Below are positions 59,150-64,000 of a stretch of 64,000 nt of DNA, one piece after another. Under the pieces are notes generated by a model that was not told where the DNA came from, did no database searches, and saw only the letters and a program-made list of their open reading frames with translations. Position 1 is the first letter of the stretch. Every line of letters starts with the position of its first letter. The position numbers and the translations under genes were made by a program. The DNA is from Albidovulum marisflavi (GTDB lineage Bacteria > Pseudomonadota > Alphaproteobacteria > Rhodobacterales > Rhodobacteraceae), in NCBI RefSeq assembly GCF_025751435.1, contig NZ_JAOWKY010000003.1, positions 124,001 to 188,000 of the forward strand, read 5' to 3'.

Positions 59150-59929
59150 TCATTCCGTCTTGGCGTCACGGGACGTTGAATCAGGATAGGAAAAGCCCAC
59201 CTGCCGCTCCAGGTCGAGGTCAAGATTCTCGAGAATGAACGCGCGATCGGCGTCCGAGATCGTCTTCACCTTGCGTTCGGGCGTGTCGGCGAAACGGTTC
59301 CACGGCCATCCGAAGCGGCCCTTCGGCACCGTGACCTGCTCAGGCTCCGGCAGGCCGTGCAGGCGCGCGACATCCGTCACGACACCTCCCGGATCAGCGA
59401 CGATCCGGTCATGCGTCCAATGGACCACCTTGATCCCGCGCTCAGACAGGCCCTGAAGGGCCTGCATTTTCCATCGGCGCAGTTCGAGAAGGTTGATCGG
59501 CGGTTTTCCTGTAAGGGGGTGCCTGTCCTGCTGCAGGATTTGACAGTTGAGCGGATCGTCGGTCGCGAGCAGGAATTTCTTGTCGACGACGCTTCGCCAC
59601 TCGGCTCGGATGAAGTCCGAAAACGGCAGGTCGCAGAGATCAGGTTCGGCGTGCCAGGGCTTTTCGTACATGCTGAGCAACCAGCCAAAGACTTCGCGGT
59701 AGACTGCGACGAAGACGACGTCATCCGGCACCGCCAGGAAACTTGGGAACCCGTGCTTCCAACCGAACTCCCGACCATCCCGGACGGGAAGGTTCTGCAT
59801 GATCAGAGCCTCGGTGAAGTTCGTCCCCGAGCAGCGTTCGCCGATGACCTGCACCTTCGGCTTGCCGAGGCGCCGGAACTCTCCAAGCGTCTGGCGCACT
59901 CGAAGGTGGACGTAGGGGCTGAAGATCAT
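59150..59929 (-). CDS. Sulfotransferase-like protein (SGTN loop)
   Basis: A 259-residue soluble protein. The N-terminal VQVIGERCSGTNFTEALI (27-44) is a P-loop-like PAPS-binding motif of a subgroup of sulfotransferase-like proteins in which the usual K/R is replaced by SGTN. The remainder has the Trp-rich FVAVYREVFGWLLSMYEKPW region and a FGWPWNRFADTPERK C-terminus. It starts at ATG 59929 with GGAG upstream; a longer open frame upstream is not protein-like. The gene is divergent from the acetyltransferase/ligase set at 60505. Acceptor and activity are inferred from the loop only. Confidence 0.65.
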   Translation of the reverse strand: MIFSPYVHLRVRQTLGEFRRLGKPKVQVIGERCSGTNFTEALIMQNLPVRDGREFGWKHGFPSFLAVPDDVVFVAVYREVFGWLLSMYEKPWHAEPDLCDLPFSDFIRAEWRSVVDKKFLLATDDPLNCQILQQDRHPLTGKPPINLLELRRWKMQALQGLSERGIKVVHWTHDRIVADPGGVVTDVARLHGLPEPEQVTVPKGRFGWPWNRFADTPERKVKTISDADRAFILENLDLDLERQVGFSYPDSTSRDAKTE

Positions 59930-60504
59930 CTGGCAGTCTCCGAACGGGTCTCGGGCGGGGCGGCACCTGCCCCGAACAGGGACGGCGCCGCGGTGATTGC
60001 GGGGTGTCCGGCCATGATTGCCTGAGCCTTTCTGGAAGCACATGGGGTAGGGTCGTTTTCCGGTAATCCGCGAGCTTGGGCAAGCTGTTGCGGGGAATGC
60101 GGGAACTCCTCTGTGATTTTGTTTCCTTGGGCGCACAAGTCTGAGGCATGGCGCGCAATCGTTTAGTAGCGGTGTCAATGCGGCTGGGCGTGTCAGACAG
60201 GCGGCTTTTCAAGGCATTGCGCCTGAGCAAGCGCGCTGCGCGGAGTGACGCCGCAGAAGGATTCAGGCTGAATGCGGCCTATTTTATCCGCATTTCTGGT
60301 CCCTTATCCCCTAACGGCCCGATGTCCGACCGCTGCCGGGCAGTCAGCGCGCGTCCGGCGAAGGACTTGGCTCAGCGGGGCGCCTCCCTCTGCTGCCGTC
60401 GAACCGCGTTGACTCCAGAAAACATTAACCTGAAACATGAACCGTCACGATTGCGTGCCGCAGCCCTGCCGGGGGAGAGCGGGCATTTTGAGTGGAAGTT
60501 GCGG
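59930..60504. other. 575-base intergenic region of divergent tailoring genes
   Basis: Contains no secure gene. A 70-codon minus-strand frame (60138-59926) ends with ATGA overlap on the sulfotransferase start, but its composition is unlike a protein. TTGACT at 60409-60414 is a possible -35 element for the acetyltransferase gene, with no good -10 beside it. Base composition is lower in GC than the coding regions, as expected for a regulatory stretch. Confidence 0.4.
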
Positions 60505-61032
60505 ATGTTGAATACTCTTCGGGCGGACTATCGACGACACAAGGGGGAAGGTGCGGCTTTCGTCGCGTTGACAACCTATCGTTTCGGCCGCTGGGCATTG
60601 AACCTCCGCAATCCCGTCCTGCGATGGTTTCTTTTGAAGGTCTACGGGCTGACGAACATGTTCGTCGCCAATGTGACGAAGATCTGGCTGCCTCCGCAGA
60701 CCACCATCGGCAAGGATTTCCACATCATCCATGGGTCCGGTTTCCTAGCCGTGCATCCGGACGTCATCATCGGGGACCGCTGCGGCGTAATGCACAACGT
60801 CACCATCGGCATGAATATGACGGGCGGGGTTCCGCAGATTGGCGACGACGTGTTCATCGGTGTCAACGCCACGATCCTTGGACCAGTGAAGATCGGCGAT
60901 CGGACGAGGATCGGTGCGAACACGGTCGTCGTGACTGACGTGCCTGCGGACTCCGTGGTTCAGGCGCCAGCGCCACGCATCTTTCCCAGTCTTTCCATTC
61001 AGAGCCTGAAGGCTTCTCGCCCTTCGACCTGA
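60505..61032 (+). CDS. Hexapeptide-repeat acetyltransferase (serine acetyltransferase-like)
   Basis: A 175-residue left-handed beta-helix enzyme. After an N-terminal helical part (MLNTLRADYRRH; FGRWALNLRNPVLR) come hexapeptide turns with HIIHGSGFLAVHPDVIIGDRC, the active-site His-containing MHNVTIGMN, IGDDVFIGVNATILG and the terminal IGANTVVVTDVPADSVV. The layout is that of short CysE-like O-acetyltransferases used in polysaccharide and lipid tailoring rather than the full-length cysteine-pathway enzyme. ATG 60505 has GGAAG upstream. It is the first of four genes read to the right edge, 23 bases before the ligase gene. Confidence 0.8.
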   Translation: MLNTLRADYRRHKGEGAAFVALTTYRFGRWALNLRNPVLRWFLLKVYGLTNMFVANVTKIWLPPQTTIGKDFHIIHGSGFLAVHPDVIIGDRCGVMHNVTIGMNMTGGVPQIGDDVFIGVNATILGPVKIGDRTRIGANTVVVTDVPADSVVQAPAPRIFPSLSIQSLKASRPST

Positions 61033-61055
61033 ACCGGCTTGCCAGGAGGCACTTC

Positions 61056-62615
61056 GTGAACGCTCTGACAACGACATTCTACCAGTTGCTGTCCGACAAC
61101 ATCCCTGCTCGTCCGGGCAAGACGGCGCTGGTGGATCCGACCCGATCGATTGACTACGCTAGCCTCGGCGCTGAGGTCGACCGTGTCGCCAGCTATCTGA
61201 GCGAGCGGGGCATCGCGCGGGGCGACCGCGTCATCGTTCATCTGCGCAAGAGCATCGAGGAAGTCGTCGCCATGCTGGCCGTTGCCAAGGTGGGTGGTGT
61301 GGTCGTGAACGTGAATGCCCAGTGGACGCTTGAGCAGCTTGGTTATGTCGCGGACGACTGCGGCGCGGTCATGGTCCTGACGGACGGACGCACCGCCGCC
61401 GCGATGTCGAAGCAGGAGCTTCCGGGGAAGGTGCGCCGCATCCTCGCGCTAGACCTCAAGTCAGAGGCCGAAGGTTTCGACAGCTGGCGTCTTCTCCCCG
61501 AAGCGTCGACGCCCGAGGTGCCGGTTCTCGATACGGAACTGGCCATGATCATCTACACCTCCGGCTCCACGGGCCGTCCCAAGGGCGTGATGCTGAGCCA
61601 CCGCAACATCATCGCCGGTGCGCGCTCGGTGGCGCGATATCTTCGGCTCTCGGAAGACGACCGATTGATCAGCATTCTTGCCTACAACTTCGATGCGGGG
61701 CTCAATCAGCTGACGACCATGCTACTGCTCGGCGGGACGGTGGTGCACCAGCCGGTGATCATGCCGACGGAGATCGTGCGCGCCATGGTCAAGCACGACG
61801 TCACGGGTCTTGCTGGGGTGCCGCCGCTGATCAACCAGATCGTCCGGCTCTTGCGCGACAACCCCGTCGCATTGCCGTCTCTGCGGCGGGTCACGAACAC
61901 CGGCGGACGGATCCCGCCCGACATTCTGGATGTCATGCCGGATGTCTTTCCCGGTGCCGACATCTACCTGATGTATGGCCTGACCGAGTCCTTCCGCTCG
62001 ACCTTTCTTGCGCCCGAGCTGTTCCACGCCAAGAAAGGATCCATCGGCAAGGCGATCCCCGGCGCCGAGGTCTTTGTCATCAAGGAAGGTGTCGGCATCG
62101 CCGGACCCGGGGAGCAGGGGGAGCTGGTCCATCGCGGCCCTCTGGTCAGCATGGGCTATTGGGGCCGCCCGGACCTGACCAACGAAAAGATCCGGACCTG
62201 CCCGGAGCTGCGCCACCTGATCGGGGAGGAGAAGGTGGTCTACAGCGGTGACATCGTCAGGGTCGACGAAGACGGCGATCTCTGGTTCATCGGCCGCAAC
62301 GACGCGATGATCAAGACGAGCGGGGTTCGCACCAGCCCCGACGAGATCGAGGATCACATCTACAGCAGCGGCATCGTCGCCGATGCCGTGGCCTACGGTG
62401 TCGAAGACGATGACCTGGGACATGCCGTGCATGTCGCCGTCACGCCTCTGGAGGGGTTCGACAAGGATCGCCTGATCGCGCACTGCTTTCGGACGATGCC
62501 GAGCTATATGGTGCCCAAGGAGATCAGATTGTGGCGGGAGGCCATGCCGCGGACGTCCAGCGGAAAGCTCGCCCGCCCCGAAATCGTAAAGATCAGCCGA
62601 GGCCTGCAGGATTAG
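61056..62615 (+). CDS. AMP-forming acyl-/aminoacyl ligase, exosortase-A-system type
   Basis: A 519-residue ANL-superfamily enzyme. It has the P-loop-like A3 motif YTSGSTGRPKGV, A5 YGLTE, A7 YSGD and A10 PRTSSGKLARPE with the catalytic lysine. Such enzymes adenylate a carboxylic acid and pass it to CoA or to a carrier protein. The order with a carrier protein and a PLP decarboxylase downstream matches the ligase described for exosortase-A-associated loci. The substrate cannot be read from the sequence. The start is GTG 61056 with a perfect AGGAGG six bases upstream. Confidence 0.85.
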   Translation: MNALTTTFYQLLSDNIPARPGKTALVDPTRSIDYASLGAEVDRVASYLSERGIARGDRVIVHLRKSIEEVVAMLAVAKVGGVVVNVNAQWTLEQLGYVADDCGAVMVLTDGRTAAAMSKQELPGKVRRILALDLKSEAEGFDSWRLLPEASTPEVPVLDTELAMIIYTSGSTGRPKGVMLSHRNIIAGARSVARYLRLSEDDRLISILAYNFDAGLNQLTTMLLLGGTVVHQPVIMPTEIVRAMVKHDVTGLAGVPPLINQIVRLLRDNPVALPSLRRVTNTGGRIPPDILDVMPDVFPGADIYLMYGLTESFRSTFLAPELFHAKKGSIGKAIPGAEVFVIKEGVGIAGPGEQGELVHRGPLVSMGYWGRPDLTNEKIRTCPELRHLIGEEKVVYSGDIVRVDEDGDLWFIGRNDAMIKTSGVRTSPDEIEDHIYSSGIVADAVAYGVEDDDLGHAVHVAVTPLEGFDKDRLIAHCFRTMPSYMVPKEIRLWREAMPRTSSGKLARPEIVKISRGLQD

Positions 62616-62678
62616 ACCCTTTGACACCAGAATGAAAGGATAGGACGTGTGTGTGATTGATGCTTCGGGTGGTTCCAA

Positions 62679-62915
62679 ATGAGCATGAAGATGGACGAAC
62701 TCCTGGAATACCTGACCGGCGTGCTCGAACCCGATGAGCCGATCGAGCCGGAGACGGAACTGTTCTCCTCCGGATTGCTCGACTCTGTCTTGATGATCGG
62801 TCTGATCATGTTCATCGAACAGAAATGCGGCATTCAGGTGCGTGCCGAAGACGTAACGCTCGACAACTTCGACACGCCTGAGAGGATCAAGAATTTTGTC
62901 GAGAGCGCAAGCTAG
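62679..62915 (+). CDS. Acyl carrier protein
   Basis: A 78-residue acidic four-helix protein. The phosphopantetheine-binding serine is Ser36 in SSGLLDSVLMIGLIMFIE, with the DSV in place of the usual DSL. The rest (PETELF, CGIQVRAEDVTLDNFDTPERI) fits small discrete carrier proteins of secondary or polysaccharide pathways rather than the fatty acid AcpP. No strong ribosome-binding site precedes the ATG at 62679, which is 63 bases after the ligase stop. It likely carries the group activated by the ligase. Confidence 0.85.
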   Translation: MSMKMDELLEYLTGVLEPDEPIEPETELFSSGLLDSVLMIGLIMFIEQKCGIQVRAEDVTLDNFDTPERIKNFVESAS

Positions 62916-62930
62916 GTAGTGACTGGTAAC

Positions 62931-64000
62931 ATGTTGGAAGCGCACGAAGATGACGCCGCCCTGGCCCGAGTCGCATCCGATTTCGGGACGCCGGCCTATG
63001 TCTACTTCACGGACAAGATCGAGCAGCGGATCGCGGATCTGCGGGCCGCATTCGGGGGGCGCTTCGCGCTGAGCTACGCCGCCAAGAGCAACCCCAACCC
63101 CGAGCTTCTGCGCTGGCTTTCGAGCCGGATCGAGAACCTCGACATCTCCTCGATCGGCGAGATGCGGCTCGGTCTTCGGGCCGGCTGGGAGCCGGAGAGG
63201 ATGAGCTTCACGGGCCCCGGGAAGCGTGACGCCGAACTGGCCGAGGCCATCGGGAACGGCGTGGGCGAGCTGATCGTCGAATCCGTGGACGAGGCGATCC
63301 GCGCCGATCGCATCGCGGCCGAGGCCGGCAGTGTCCAACGCATCATGGTCCGCATCGCGCCCGACAGGGTTCCGAAAGGCTTCGGCGACCAGATGGCCGG
63401 CAGGCCAAGTGCATTCGGGGTCGACTATGAAGCGATCCACGAGGAGCTTCCGAAGATCCTCGCGCTCAGGAACCTTCGGCTGATCGGGCTTCACATCTAC
63501 GCGGGAACGCAGTGCCTGGTCCCGGAGGCGATCTGCGAGAATTACCGGATATTCATGAGCATCTTTTCCGATGTCTGCGAGCGGCATGATATCTGGCCGG
63601 AGAAGCTTGTCTTCGGATCGGGTCTGGGCGTTCCCTACTTCGAGAACGATGCGCCGATTGACCTGAAGGCCGCCGCGCTTGGCATCCGAAAAGAGATCGA
63701 CGCTTTCTGTGCGCTTCCCAGGTTCGCCAAGACCGATCTGGCGCTTGAACTGGGGCGCTACCTCGTCGGAGAGGCGGGATATTTCCTGACCGGCATCACC
63801 ACGATCAAGGAATCGCGCGGAACGCGTTTTGGCATCTGCGACGGCGGCATGAACAACCACCTGCCCGCCTCCGGCAACTTCGGCATGGTGATCCATCGCA
63901 ATTACCGAATGCATCGGGTCGGCGGGGGAGAGCCCGCGCGAAAGGTCAATCTTGTCGGCCCGCTTTGCACGCCGCTAGACCGGATCGGCGTTGGCGTACA
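62931..64000 (+). CDS. Pyridoxal-dependent decarboxylase, fold type III (truncated at window end)
   Basis: Reads from ATG 62931 off the right edge; 356 codons are present and no stop was met. The N-terminal TIM barrel has the Schiff-base lysine Lys52 in ALSYAAKSNPNPELL, the GLHIYAGTQ segment, the glycine-rich phosphate loop FGSGLGVPY and GPLCTPLDRIGVG with the cysteine that reaches the partner active site. This is the ornithine/diaminopimelate decarboxylase fold; the closest pattern is the exosortase-A-associated and BtrK-like group that acts on carrier-bound amino acids. It begins 15 bases after the carrier protein gene. Substrate unknown; the missing end contains only the last part of the beta domain. 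Confidence 0.85.
   Translation, partial: MLEAHEDDAALARVASDFGTPAYVYFTDKIEQRIADLRAAFGGRFALSYAAKSNPNPELLRWLSSRIENLDISSIGEMRLGLRAGWEPERMSFTGPGKRDAELAEAIGNGVGELIVESVDEAIRADRIAAEAGSVQRIMVRIAPDRVPKGFGDQMAGRPSAFGVDYEAIHEELPKILALRNLRLIGLHIYAGTQCLVPEAICENYRIFMSIFSDVCERHDIWPEKLVFGSGLGVPYFENDAPIDLKAAALGIRKEIDAFCALPRFAKTDLALELGRYLVGEAGYFLTGITTIKESRGTRFGICDGGMNNHLPASGNFGMVIHRNYRMHRVGGGEPARKVNLVGPLCTPLDRIGVGV

What the first reader, a model, noticed from the sequence alone, without database searches (positions are those of the whole stretch)
60505..64000. Self-contained ligase / carrier protein / PLP decarboxylase module beside acetyl- and sulfotransferases
Seen: an AMP-forming ligase, a discrete carrier protein with Ser36 and a fold-III PLP decarboxylase stand in order on one strand, with an acetyltransferase directly before and a sulfotransferase-like gene divergent. 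Established: similar ligase and decarboxylase families occur in exosortase-A/exopolysaccharide loci, and in butirosin biosynthesis BtrK decarboxylates a glutamyl group while it is bound to a carrier protein. Inference: this module may load an amino acid on the carrier, decarboxylate it there, and hand an amino-acyl group to a sugar or lipid that is also acetylated and sulfated. I see no exosortase gene within the window, so the module may work alone or be the edge of a larger locus.
Basis: partly seen in the sequence, partly recalled or inferred. Interest (0 to 1): 0.72.

Follow-up and report, generated by a model that had tools for sequence, protein, structure and literature searches.

The report
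Carrier-bound beta-alanine cassette with glycosyltransferase
A compact set of five neighbouring bacterial genes probably loads an aspartate onto a small carrier protein, trims it there to beta-alanine and attaches it to a surface sugar, which would bring a step known from antibiotic assembly lines into sugar-polymer biology.

Summary
In detail: an AMP-forming ligase, a 78-aa carrier (Ser36) and a fold-III PLP decarboxylase stand in order behind a hexapeptide acyltransferase. The window cuts the locus: next comes a family-61 glycosyltransferase (GT61), then housekeeping genes. No exosortase was found in this genome. Acyltransferase, ligase, carrier and decarboxylase keep this order in 41 of 41 distinct loci with a decarboxylase of at least 52% identity; GT61 is there in 39. 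In 292 sampled genomes of the order, close decarboxylase, acyltransferase and GT61 relatives occur in the same 9. The divergent "sulfotransferase" is shared only with the closest relative.

The decarboxylase resembles BtrK, not LysA. The ligase's pocket half best matches VinN, and VinN's aspartate-binding residues are kept in 41 of 41 cassette ligases and 16 of 16 exosortase-A-type ligases, but in none of 12 other AMP-binding proteins of this genome. Best reading: aspartate is loaded by its side-chain carboxyl, decarboxylated on the carrier to beta-alanyl-carrier, and passed to a glycan. Loading and decarboxylation are well supported by homology; exact substrate, transferase and acceptor are inferred. 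Related to, but distinct from, the TIGR03098/TIGR03099 exosortase-A set.

The parts
60505..61032 (+). AT: hexapeptide-repeat acyltransferase (175 aa), nearest to serine acetyltransferases, dedicated to the cassette
   Evidence: in the order found at E<=1e-20 in exactly the 9 cassette genomes of 292
61056..62615 (+). LIG: AMP-forming ligase, proposed L-aspartate(beta-carboxyl)--carrier ligase, VinN/BolO-like
61692..61694 (+). LIG Asp213 = VinN Asp230 (amino-group recognition)
   Evidence: role in VinN from PMC7756342 (passages)
61899..61901 (+). LIG Thr282 = VinN Ser299 (alpha-carboxylate recognition; Ser in 26 and Thr in 15 of 41 cassette ligases)
61995..61997 (+). LIG Arg314 = VinN Arg331 (alpha-carboxylate recognition)
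62679..62915 (+). ACP: 78-aa aminoacyl-type carrier protein, attachment Ser36 at 62784-62786
62919..64000 (+). DEC: fold-III PLP decarboxylase, BtrK-like; continues beyond the window to L003:6169 (window-equivalent 64169). The fifth cassette gene, GT61, lies wholly beyond the window edge on the same strand (L003:6225-7280, window-equivalent 64225-65280)
63084..63086 (+). DEC Lys56 of the YAAKSNPN stretch, aligned with the lysine stretch of BtrK and DapDC
   Evidence: PLP-binding role of the lysine recalled
63966..63968 (+). DEC Cys350 of CTPLD (BtrK CTPED; compared DapDC CETGD)

Best explanation
A five-gene cassette (acyltransferase, ligase, carrier protein, decarboxylase, GT61) that makes a carrier-bound omega-amino acid and puts it on a glycan. 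Steps: (1) LIG adenylates L-aspartate (or a beta-substituted aspartate) at its side-chain carboxyl and loads it on the phosphopantetheine of ACP Ser36. (2) DEC removes the alpha-carboxyl while the residue is on the carrier, giving beta-alanyl-ACP. (3) AT transfers the beta-alanyl group from the carrier to an amino or hydroxyl group of a sugar. (4) GT61 adds that sugar to, or builds, the surface polysaccharide that carries it. Steps 1-2 rest on residue-level homology to characterised or genetically tested systems; steps 3-4 rest on strict gene association, enzyme class and exopolysaccharide context in part of the relatives, and are inferred.
For: Conservation: AT+LIG+ACP+DEC, same strand and order, in 41 of 41 distinct loci; GT61 in 39 of 41 (34 upstream of AT, 5 downstream of DEC). 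In 292 sampled genomes of the order, AT at E<=1e-20 is in exactly the 9 genomes that hold a DEC of at least 52% identity, and GT61 at E<=1e-76 is in the same 9. DEC: best solved relatives by sequence are BtrK 7ru7/2j66 (225.7/225.5 bits) against 153.3 for the best diaminopimelate decarboxylase; it shares GPGK, HxYxGTQ, CTPxD and GAYGxxxSP with BtrK. LIG: residues 201-345 best match VinN (60 bits, next 31.5). VinN's recognition residues (PMC7756342, passages) are Asp, Ser or Thr, Arg in 41 of 41 cassette ligases, 16 of 16 exosortase-A-type ligases and 14 of 15 other ligases found in the same locus as a DEC relative, and in 0 of 12 other AMP-binding proteins of this genome with a full domain. 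VinN accepts 3-methylaspartate, not its decarboxylated form, and decarboxylation follows thioester formation (PMC11284099, passages). A sister-group locus has a methylaspartate (glutamate) mutase E gene between LIG and DEC. ACP matches mostly amino-acid carriers among solved structures. Rhizobiales and Sphingomonadales copies lie among export, chain-length and sugar-transferase genes.
Against: No biochemistry. Aspartate versus glutamate cannot be settled by sequence: BtrK itself acts on a glutamyl carrier. AT resembles serine O-acetyltransferases and could use acetyl-CoA instead of the carrier. In this genome no polysaccharide genes adjoin the cassette; its exopolysaccharide locus is elsewhere, and I annotated only a few neighbours in the other Rhodobacterales. 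In 13 of 41 loci (Rhizobium/Neorhizobium type) an NRPS-like gene lies a few kb away, which would suit a small-molecule product as well. In the closest relative (L036) GT61 is not beside the cassette (51% and 36% copies elsewhere). GT61 has paralogues in 4 of the 9 cassette genomes of the order, so it is less strictly tied than AT.
Confidence: 0.57

Rival explanations
1. Same load-then-decarboxylate chemistry, but with L-glutamate, giving a 4-aminobutyryl carrier as in butirosin (BtrI/J/K).
For: DEC's nearest solved relative by sequence is BtrK, which works on a glutamyl carrier.
Against: The ligase carries the VinN/BolO aspartate-recognition residues; butirosin uses an unrelated ATP-grasp ligase (recalled); a sister-group locus carries a mutase that makes methylaspartate.
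Confidence: 0.15
2. DEC decarboxylates a free amino acid (LysA- or ornithine-decarboxylase-like) and LIG then loads the product or another acid.
For: TIGR01048 (LysA) scores 241.4 bits against DEC; LIG also scores on acyl-CoA ligase models; 5 of 30 non-cassette loci with a DEC relative show no LIG match within the fetched stretch.
Against: DEC sits apart from the genome's own LysA and ODC-like proteins in the tree (the ODC row is a very long branch) and lacks the LysA-type CExGD motif. LIG keeps the Arg that in VinN recognises the alpha-carboxylate, which a decarboxylated product lacks. In bolagladin, free beta-alanine did not rescue loss of the BtrK-like enzyme (PMC7756342, passages).
Confidence: 0.1
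3. AT is an acetyl-CoA-dependent O- or N-acetyltransferase for the glycan (or for the amine of beta-alanyl-ACP), and the beta-alanyl group is delivered by another enzyme coded elsewhere.
For: Best solved matches of AT are serine acetyltransferases (74.8 bits); hexapeptide acetyltransferases are common in polysaccharide loci (general knowledge).
Against: In the printed alignment the SAT stretch DRHP is shortened and changed while the first histidine is kept (its serine-binding role is recalled). No second acyltransferase family was seen among the recurring neighbours that I annotated, though several recurring clusters had no family match and a CE2/GDSL esterase-like gene recurs in 6 loci.
Confidence: 0.3
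4. Small-molecule cassette (a beta-amino-acid-bearing glycoside, lipid or peptide), not a polysaccharide decoration.
For: Related DEC/LIG pairs sit in NRPS/PKS-like surroundings (L033), and in 13 of 41 cassette loci an NRPS-like gene and a PPTase lie a few kb away.
Against: The partner kept in 39 of 41 loci is a GT61; export, chain-length and sugar-transferase genes flank the cassette in Rhizobiales and Sphingomonadales; those 13 loci are one syntenic group of related strains. I did not annotate every neighbour.
Confidence: 0.18

Closest known systems
VinN/VinL/VinO (vicenistatin) and FlvN/FlvO (fluvirucin) beta-amino-acid starter-unit systems
   Same: Standalone adenylating ligase, standalone carrier, PLP decarboxylase acting on the loaded carrier (PMC11284099 and PMC10662134, passages); VinN's recognition residues kept
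   Different: Those feed polyketide synthases and add VinM/VinK steps; here a hexapeptide acyltransferase and GT61 are the constant partners; no PKS was seen among annotated neighbours. VinO and FlvO sequences were not compared
BolO/BolC/BolN (bolagladin, Burkholderia gladioli)
   Same: Proposed Asp-to-beta-alanyl carrier with a VinN-like ligase and a BtrK-like decarboxylase; bolN deletion not rescued by beta-alanine (PMC7756342, passages)
   Different: Feeds an NRPS; followed by an acyl-CoA-dehydrogenase-like desaturase. Sequences were not compared
BtrI/BtrJ/BtrK (butirosin)
   Same: BtrK is the closest solved relative of DEC by sequence
   Different: Glutamate substrate; ATP-grasp ligase and aminoglycoside acceptor (recalled)
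TIGR03098 ligase / TIGR03099 decarboxylase, exosortase A (XrtA) system
   Same: Paired ligase and decarboxylase, 37-42% and 34-41% identity to the window's at 17 loci over the TIGR03099 cut-off; same ligase residues; exopolysaccharide context
   Different: The window's proteins are below both curated cut-offs; separate clade; AT and GT61 instead of hydr1/hydr2; no exosortase found in the genome

Membership tests
Exosortase-A-associated set (TIGR03098/TIGR03099) | Ligase over TIGR03098 cut-off 592.35 bits | tested here: not met
   525.6 bits
Exosortase-A-associated set (TIGR03098/TIGR03099) | Decarboxylase over TIGR03099 cut-off 478.45 bits | tested here: not met
   372 bits full length; 29 of 398 sampled genomes of the phylum pass it, G000 does not
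Exosortase-A-associated set (TIGR03098/TIGR03099) | Exosortase gene in the genome | tested here: not met
   PF09721: none in G000, 99.99% complete. Over 41 cassette genomes none found in 25 (6 of 9, 19 of 32, the latter of unstated completeness). Within fetched loci: 0 of 43 cassette loci, but only 4 of 31 XrtA-type/below-cut-off loci ring, so the local test is weak
LysA / free diaminopimelate decarboxylase | Groups with LysA and has the CExGD motif | tested here: not met
BtrK/VinO-type carrier-bound decarboxylase | Sequence motifs and nearness to BtrK | tested here: met
   BtrK best in PDB by sequence; motifs shared; tree support for the wide group only 80
BtrK/VinO-type carrier-bound decarboxylase | Activity on aminoacyl carrier, not on free amino acid | not testable with these tools
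   Needs enzyme assay
VinN/BolO-type isoaspartyl-carrier ligase | Asp230/Ser299/Arg331 recognition residues | tested here: met
   Asp/Thr/Arg in the window ligase (Thr for Ser); Asp, Ser or Thr, Arg in 41 of 41 cassette ligases
VinN/BolO-type isoaspartyl-carrier ligase | Loads (methyl)aspartate through the beta-carboxyl | not testable with these tools
   Needs assay
Serine O-acetyltransferase (CysE/EpsC) | Over NCBIfam cut-off (TIGR01172 210.65; NF041874 150) | tested here: not met
   77.2 and 89.2 bits
Sulfotransferase (divergent neighbour) | Pfam sulfotransferase match | tested here: not met
   0 families at E 0.01; AlphaFold model too poor to use (mean pLDDT 38.8)

The most novel reading that the evidence does not exclude
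Carrier-bound aspartate-to-beta-alanine chemistry, known from antibiotic assembly lines, is a widespread glycan-decoration pathway of Gram-negative bacteria. The GT61/acyltransferase cassette is one branch; the ligase/decarboxylase pair of exosortase-A exopolysaccharide loci (its ligase named 'acyl-CoA ligase' in NCBIfam) is another, and both put an amine-bearing beta-alanyl group on surface polysaccharides.
Probability: 0.4. Interest if true: 0.78.

Novelty: new variant of a known kind. Interest (0 to 1): 0.66.

Why it matters
It would show a natural-product starter-unit mechanism working in cell-surface glycan biosynthesis, give a testable substrate (aspartate) and product (beta-alanyl carrier) for a conserved gene set for which I found no printed function in the held library, and suggest that the ligases named 'acyl-CoA ligase' in exosortase-A loci are aspartate-carrier ligases. 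A positively charged beta-alanyl group would change the charge of the polymer.

Tried and rejected
Exosortase edge: rejected after reading about 14 kb to the right of the window and searching the genome. LysA/ODC reading: rejected. Sulfotransferase as part of the module: rejected. Two-sequence AlphaFold model of the divergent gene (mean pLDDT 38.8) and 10-sequence model of AT (58.1) were too weak, so no fold search was run. A profile search of the ligase against the PDB listed only two-domain gramicidin synthase entries at the threshold set, so the pocket half alone was used. Against my reading: with the full-length ligase gramicidin synthase A (290.8 bits over two domains) and another peptide synthetase (201.6) rank above VinN (180.5). 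The genome's second GT61 (50% identity, C2:1430306) has lepA on one side and, three genes along on the other, a DMSP-lyase gene, and gave no clue to the acceptor.

Paper searches for a printed function of this set found none in the held library: exosortase + carrier protein + decarboxylase + polysaccharide + ligase (0 papers); PEP-CTERM + pyridoxal-dependent decarboxylase; TIGR03099 / TIGR03098 / 'exosortase A system-associated' / 'isoaspartyl thioester' (1 paper, bolagladin, by the last term). Listings only were seen for the looser searches, apart from the four papers opened: PMC11284099, PMC10662134 and PMC7756342 (passages) and PMC1569441 (a find for ligase, acyl-CoA, pyridoxal, carrier protein and hydrolase: 0 occurrences).

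Limits: the scan of named genomes was seeded with peptides of this DEC, so it finds close relatives only and is no census. In the tree I used 26 of the 41 cassette rows and the quick method. L030-L035 are distant relatives, told apart. The own-genome ligase control leaves out L139 (the ligase itself), L149 (same open frame as L148) and the weak or partial L150 and L151, which lack the residues too. The count of 42 includes L125; the 41 does not. L112, L118, L121, L127 and L130 gave no LIG match; for the other non-cassette loci the LIG row is the best match in the locus, not always next to DEC (L105 and L122, for instance). Gene calling was my own script; it misses some small carriers and miscalls some strands. 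The presence counts come from tblastn. Gene-cluster names come from one member each; the chain-length and kinase clusters were named from the L030 member, which is not a cassette locus.


Full report
WHAT IS THERE. The window is G000:C4:124001-188000 of a 3.8-Mb genome in 10 contigs; the nearest named relative by decarboxylase is Defluviimonas sp. WL0075 (84%). On the + strand stand a hexapeptide acyltransferase (AT, 60505-61032), an AMP-forming ligase (LIG, 61056-62615), a 78-aa carrier (ACP, 62679-62915) and a fold-III PLP decarboxylase (DEC, 62919-64169, cut by the window). Reading on, the next gene is a family-61 glycosyltransferase (GT61, PF04577), 55 bases after DEC, followed by proS, lolCE, lolD, a cytochrome c and rpsD. 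So the locus is a five-gene unit beside housekeeping genes, not the edge of a larger cluster.

IS IT A UNIT? Two are repeats, leaving 41. tblastn finds AT, LIG, ACP and DEC on one strand in that order in 41 of 41, and GT61 in 39 of 41: upstream of AT in 34, downstream of DEC in 5. The two exceptions are L036 (closest relative; GT61-like genes of 51% and 36% elsewhere in its genome) and L040 (contig begins 45 bases before the AT match). By record titles the hosts are mostly Rhodobacterales, Rhizobiales, Hyphomicrobium and Sphingomonadales, plus metagenome bins labelled Fimbriimonadaceae and Polyangiaceae. In a sample of 292 genomes of the order, DEC at E<=1e-60 is in 14: 9 cassette genomes and 5 with distant relatives. 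AT at E<=1e-20 is in exactly those 9. GT61 at E<=1e-76, paralogues included, is in the same 9; four other genomes have 29-32% matches. The two genomes of the window's own genus in the sample lack DEC, AT and GT61 at these thresholds, so the cassette is sporadic. The divergent 'sulfotransferase' is present in L003 and L036 only, 2 of 49 loci searched, while homologues occur in 31 of 196 genomes of the order; it is a neighbour, not a part.

THE DECARBOXYLASE. By sequence its best solved relatives are the two BtrK entries (225.7 and 225.5 bits); the best diaminopimelate decarboxylase has 153.3. It shares with BtrK the GPGK, HxYxGTQ, CTPxD and GAYGxxxSP stretches; the compared DapDC has GVGK, HCHIGSQ, CETGD and GAYGFAMSS. 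Most cassette members have CTSID instead of CTPLD. The genome's own LysA and ODC-like proteins are separate. In a quick maximum-likelihood tree of 66 rows (26 of the 41 cassette rows used) the cassette DECs are one clade (SH-aLRT 94), the 17 rows over the TIGR03099 cut-off another (100), and the two LysA-type rows lie outside; deeper branches are weak (80-81) and the ODC row is a very long branch. TIGR03099 scores 372 bits, below its 478.45 cut-off.

THE LIGASE. TIGR03098 scores 525.6 bits, below 592.35. Full length, peptide synthetases rank first in the PDB and VinN has 180.5 bits. For residues 201-345, which hold the main substrate-pocket positions (general knowledge of the fold), VinN (3wv4/3wvn) is clearly best, 60 against 31.5 bits for the next. 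[quoted passage not shown] With an offset of 16 between chain and published numbering, the ungapped alignment puts them on LIG Asp213, Thr282 and Arg314. Asp, Ser or Thr, and Arg occur in 41 of 41 cassette ligases, in 16 of 16 exosortase-A-type ligases (one of the 17 loci gave no LIG match) and in 14 of 15 other ligases found in a locus with a DEC relative. Of the genome's 12 other AMP-binding proteins with a full domain none has all three; one, NRPS-like, has the Asp alone. VinN recognises 3-methylaspartate but not the decarboxylated 3-aminoisobutyrate, and decarboxylation needs the thioester first (PMC11284099, passages). In the bolagladin pathway loss of the BtrK-like BolN was not rescued by free beta-alanine. 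In sister-group locus L119 a methylaspartate mutase E gene lies between LIG and DEC, as expected if this family handles aspartate-type substrates; no other of the 80 loci searched has one, hence plain aspartate is my first choice for the cassette.

CARRIER, ACYLTRANSFERASE, GT61. ACP has invariant Asp35-Ser36 (16 sequences), and its solved relatives are mostly amino-acid carriers: CcbZ, PigG, PltL, D-alanyl and aminoacyl carriers. AT is nearest to serine acetyltransferases (74.8 bits); the aligned histidine of the HAxG stretch is kept and the DRHP stretch is shortened and changed. Its tie to the cassette makes it the natural candidate for moving the acyl group; that hexapeptide acyltransferases such as LpxA and LpxD take acyl groups from carriers is recalled knowledge. 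GT61 supplies the glycan link. In Rhizobiales and Sphingomonadales loci recurring neighbours are homologues of polysaccharide export (PF02563 over cut-off in L043), sugar-transferase (PF02397 and TIGR03025 over cut-off in L043), chain-length and tyrosine-kinase proteins (TIGR03007, TIGR03018, below cut-off, named from L030). L025 has a DegT-type aminotransferase gene near its GT61. In 13 of 41 loci an NRPS-like gene and a PPTase lie a few kb off. This genome has an exopolysaccharide locus, but elsewhere (C2, about 305-313 kb).

EXOSORTASE. PF09721 is absent from G000 and present in both other sampled genomes of its genus, which lack the cassette. Over 41 cassette genomes it is found in 16 (3 of 9, 13 of 32). 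By tblastn no cassette locus has one (0 of 43), but only 4 of the 31 other loci do within the fetched stretch, so this local test is weak. The canonical locus L107 has ligase, decarboxylase, a divergent 83-aa ORF, hydr1, hydr2 and XrtA-type genes over their cut-offs. None of 30 non-cassette loci has GT61, and none has AT above 55 bits (one short match of 36.6). So cassette and exosortase-A set share the ligase/decarboxylase core and differ in partners.

MECHANISM. Shown by sequence: the gene unit, its conservation, the BtrK-type decarboxylase, the VinN-type recognition residues, an aminoacyl-type carrier. Inferred with good support: loading of a dicarboxylic amino acid by its side-chain carboxyl and decarboxylation on the carrier. 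Inferred with moderate support: aspartate to beta-alanyl. Inferred with weak support: AT as the transferase and a surface glycan as acceptor.

NOVELTY. The chemistry is known (vicenistatin, fluvirucin, butirosin, bolagladin). Its use in a compact cassette with GT61 and a dedicated acyltransferase, and the implication that the exosortase-A pair does the same, were not found in the held library (searches listed under Tried and rejected). I call it a new variant of a known kind.

Noticed in passing
L033:9105-11591 (similar long frames in L032, L035, L126): A DEC relative fused to acyl-CoA-dehydrogenase domains, with a KASIII-like gene, ligases, a carrier and a P450: looks like bolagladin-type (dehydro-beta-alanine) clusters in the window's own family (the fusion was checked by Pfam in L033 only).
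   Followed up: partly
L030:5902-10952 and L124:5827-10912: A sister arrangement carrier-DEC-Pfam sulfotransferase-ligase, followed by an acyl-CoA-dehydrogenase-like gene in L030 (the L124 counterpart has no Pfam match).
   Followed up: no
L119:9113-14493: Methylaspartate (glutamate) mutase E between ligase and decarboxylase, a carrier-like ORF nearby on the other strand: vicenistatin-like logic elsewhere in the phylum.
   Followed up: partly
L197 (G000:C2:296000-315999): Exopolysaccharide locus with XrtA-type ATPase (254 bits), PrsT-like, chain-length and export genes, below the XrtA cut-offs, in a genome without detectable exosortase.
   Followed up: no
L191:9247-10287 (G000:C2): Second GT61 of this genome (50% identity to the cassette's), next to lepA and a dehydrogenase gene and close to a DMSP lyase DddP gene.
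   Followed up: partly
L043:16911-21193: A PPTase and a 1209-aa NRPS-like protein with a MupA/Atu3671 luciferase-like domain near the cassette; the cluster recurs in 13 loci.
   Followed up: no
window 59150-60178 (-): Gene of a family spread in the order (31 of 196 genomes) with a P-loop-like GERCSGTNF stretch and no Pfam match; real start probably near 59929.
   Followed up: partly
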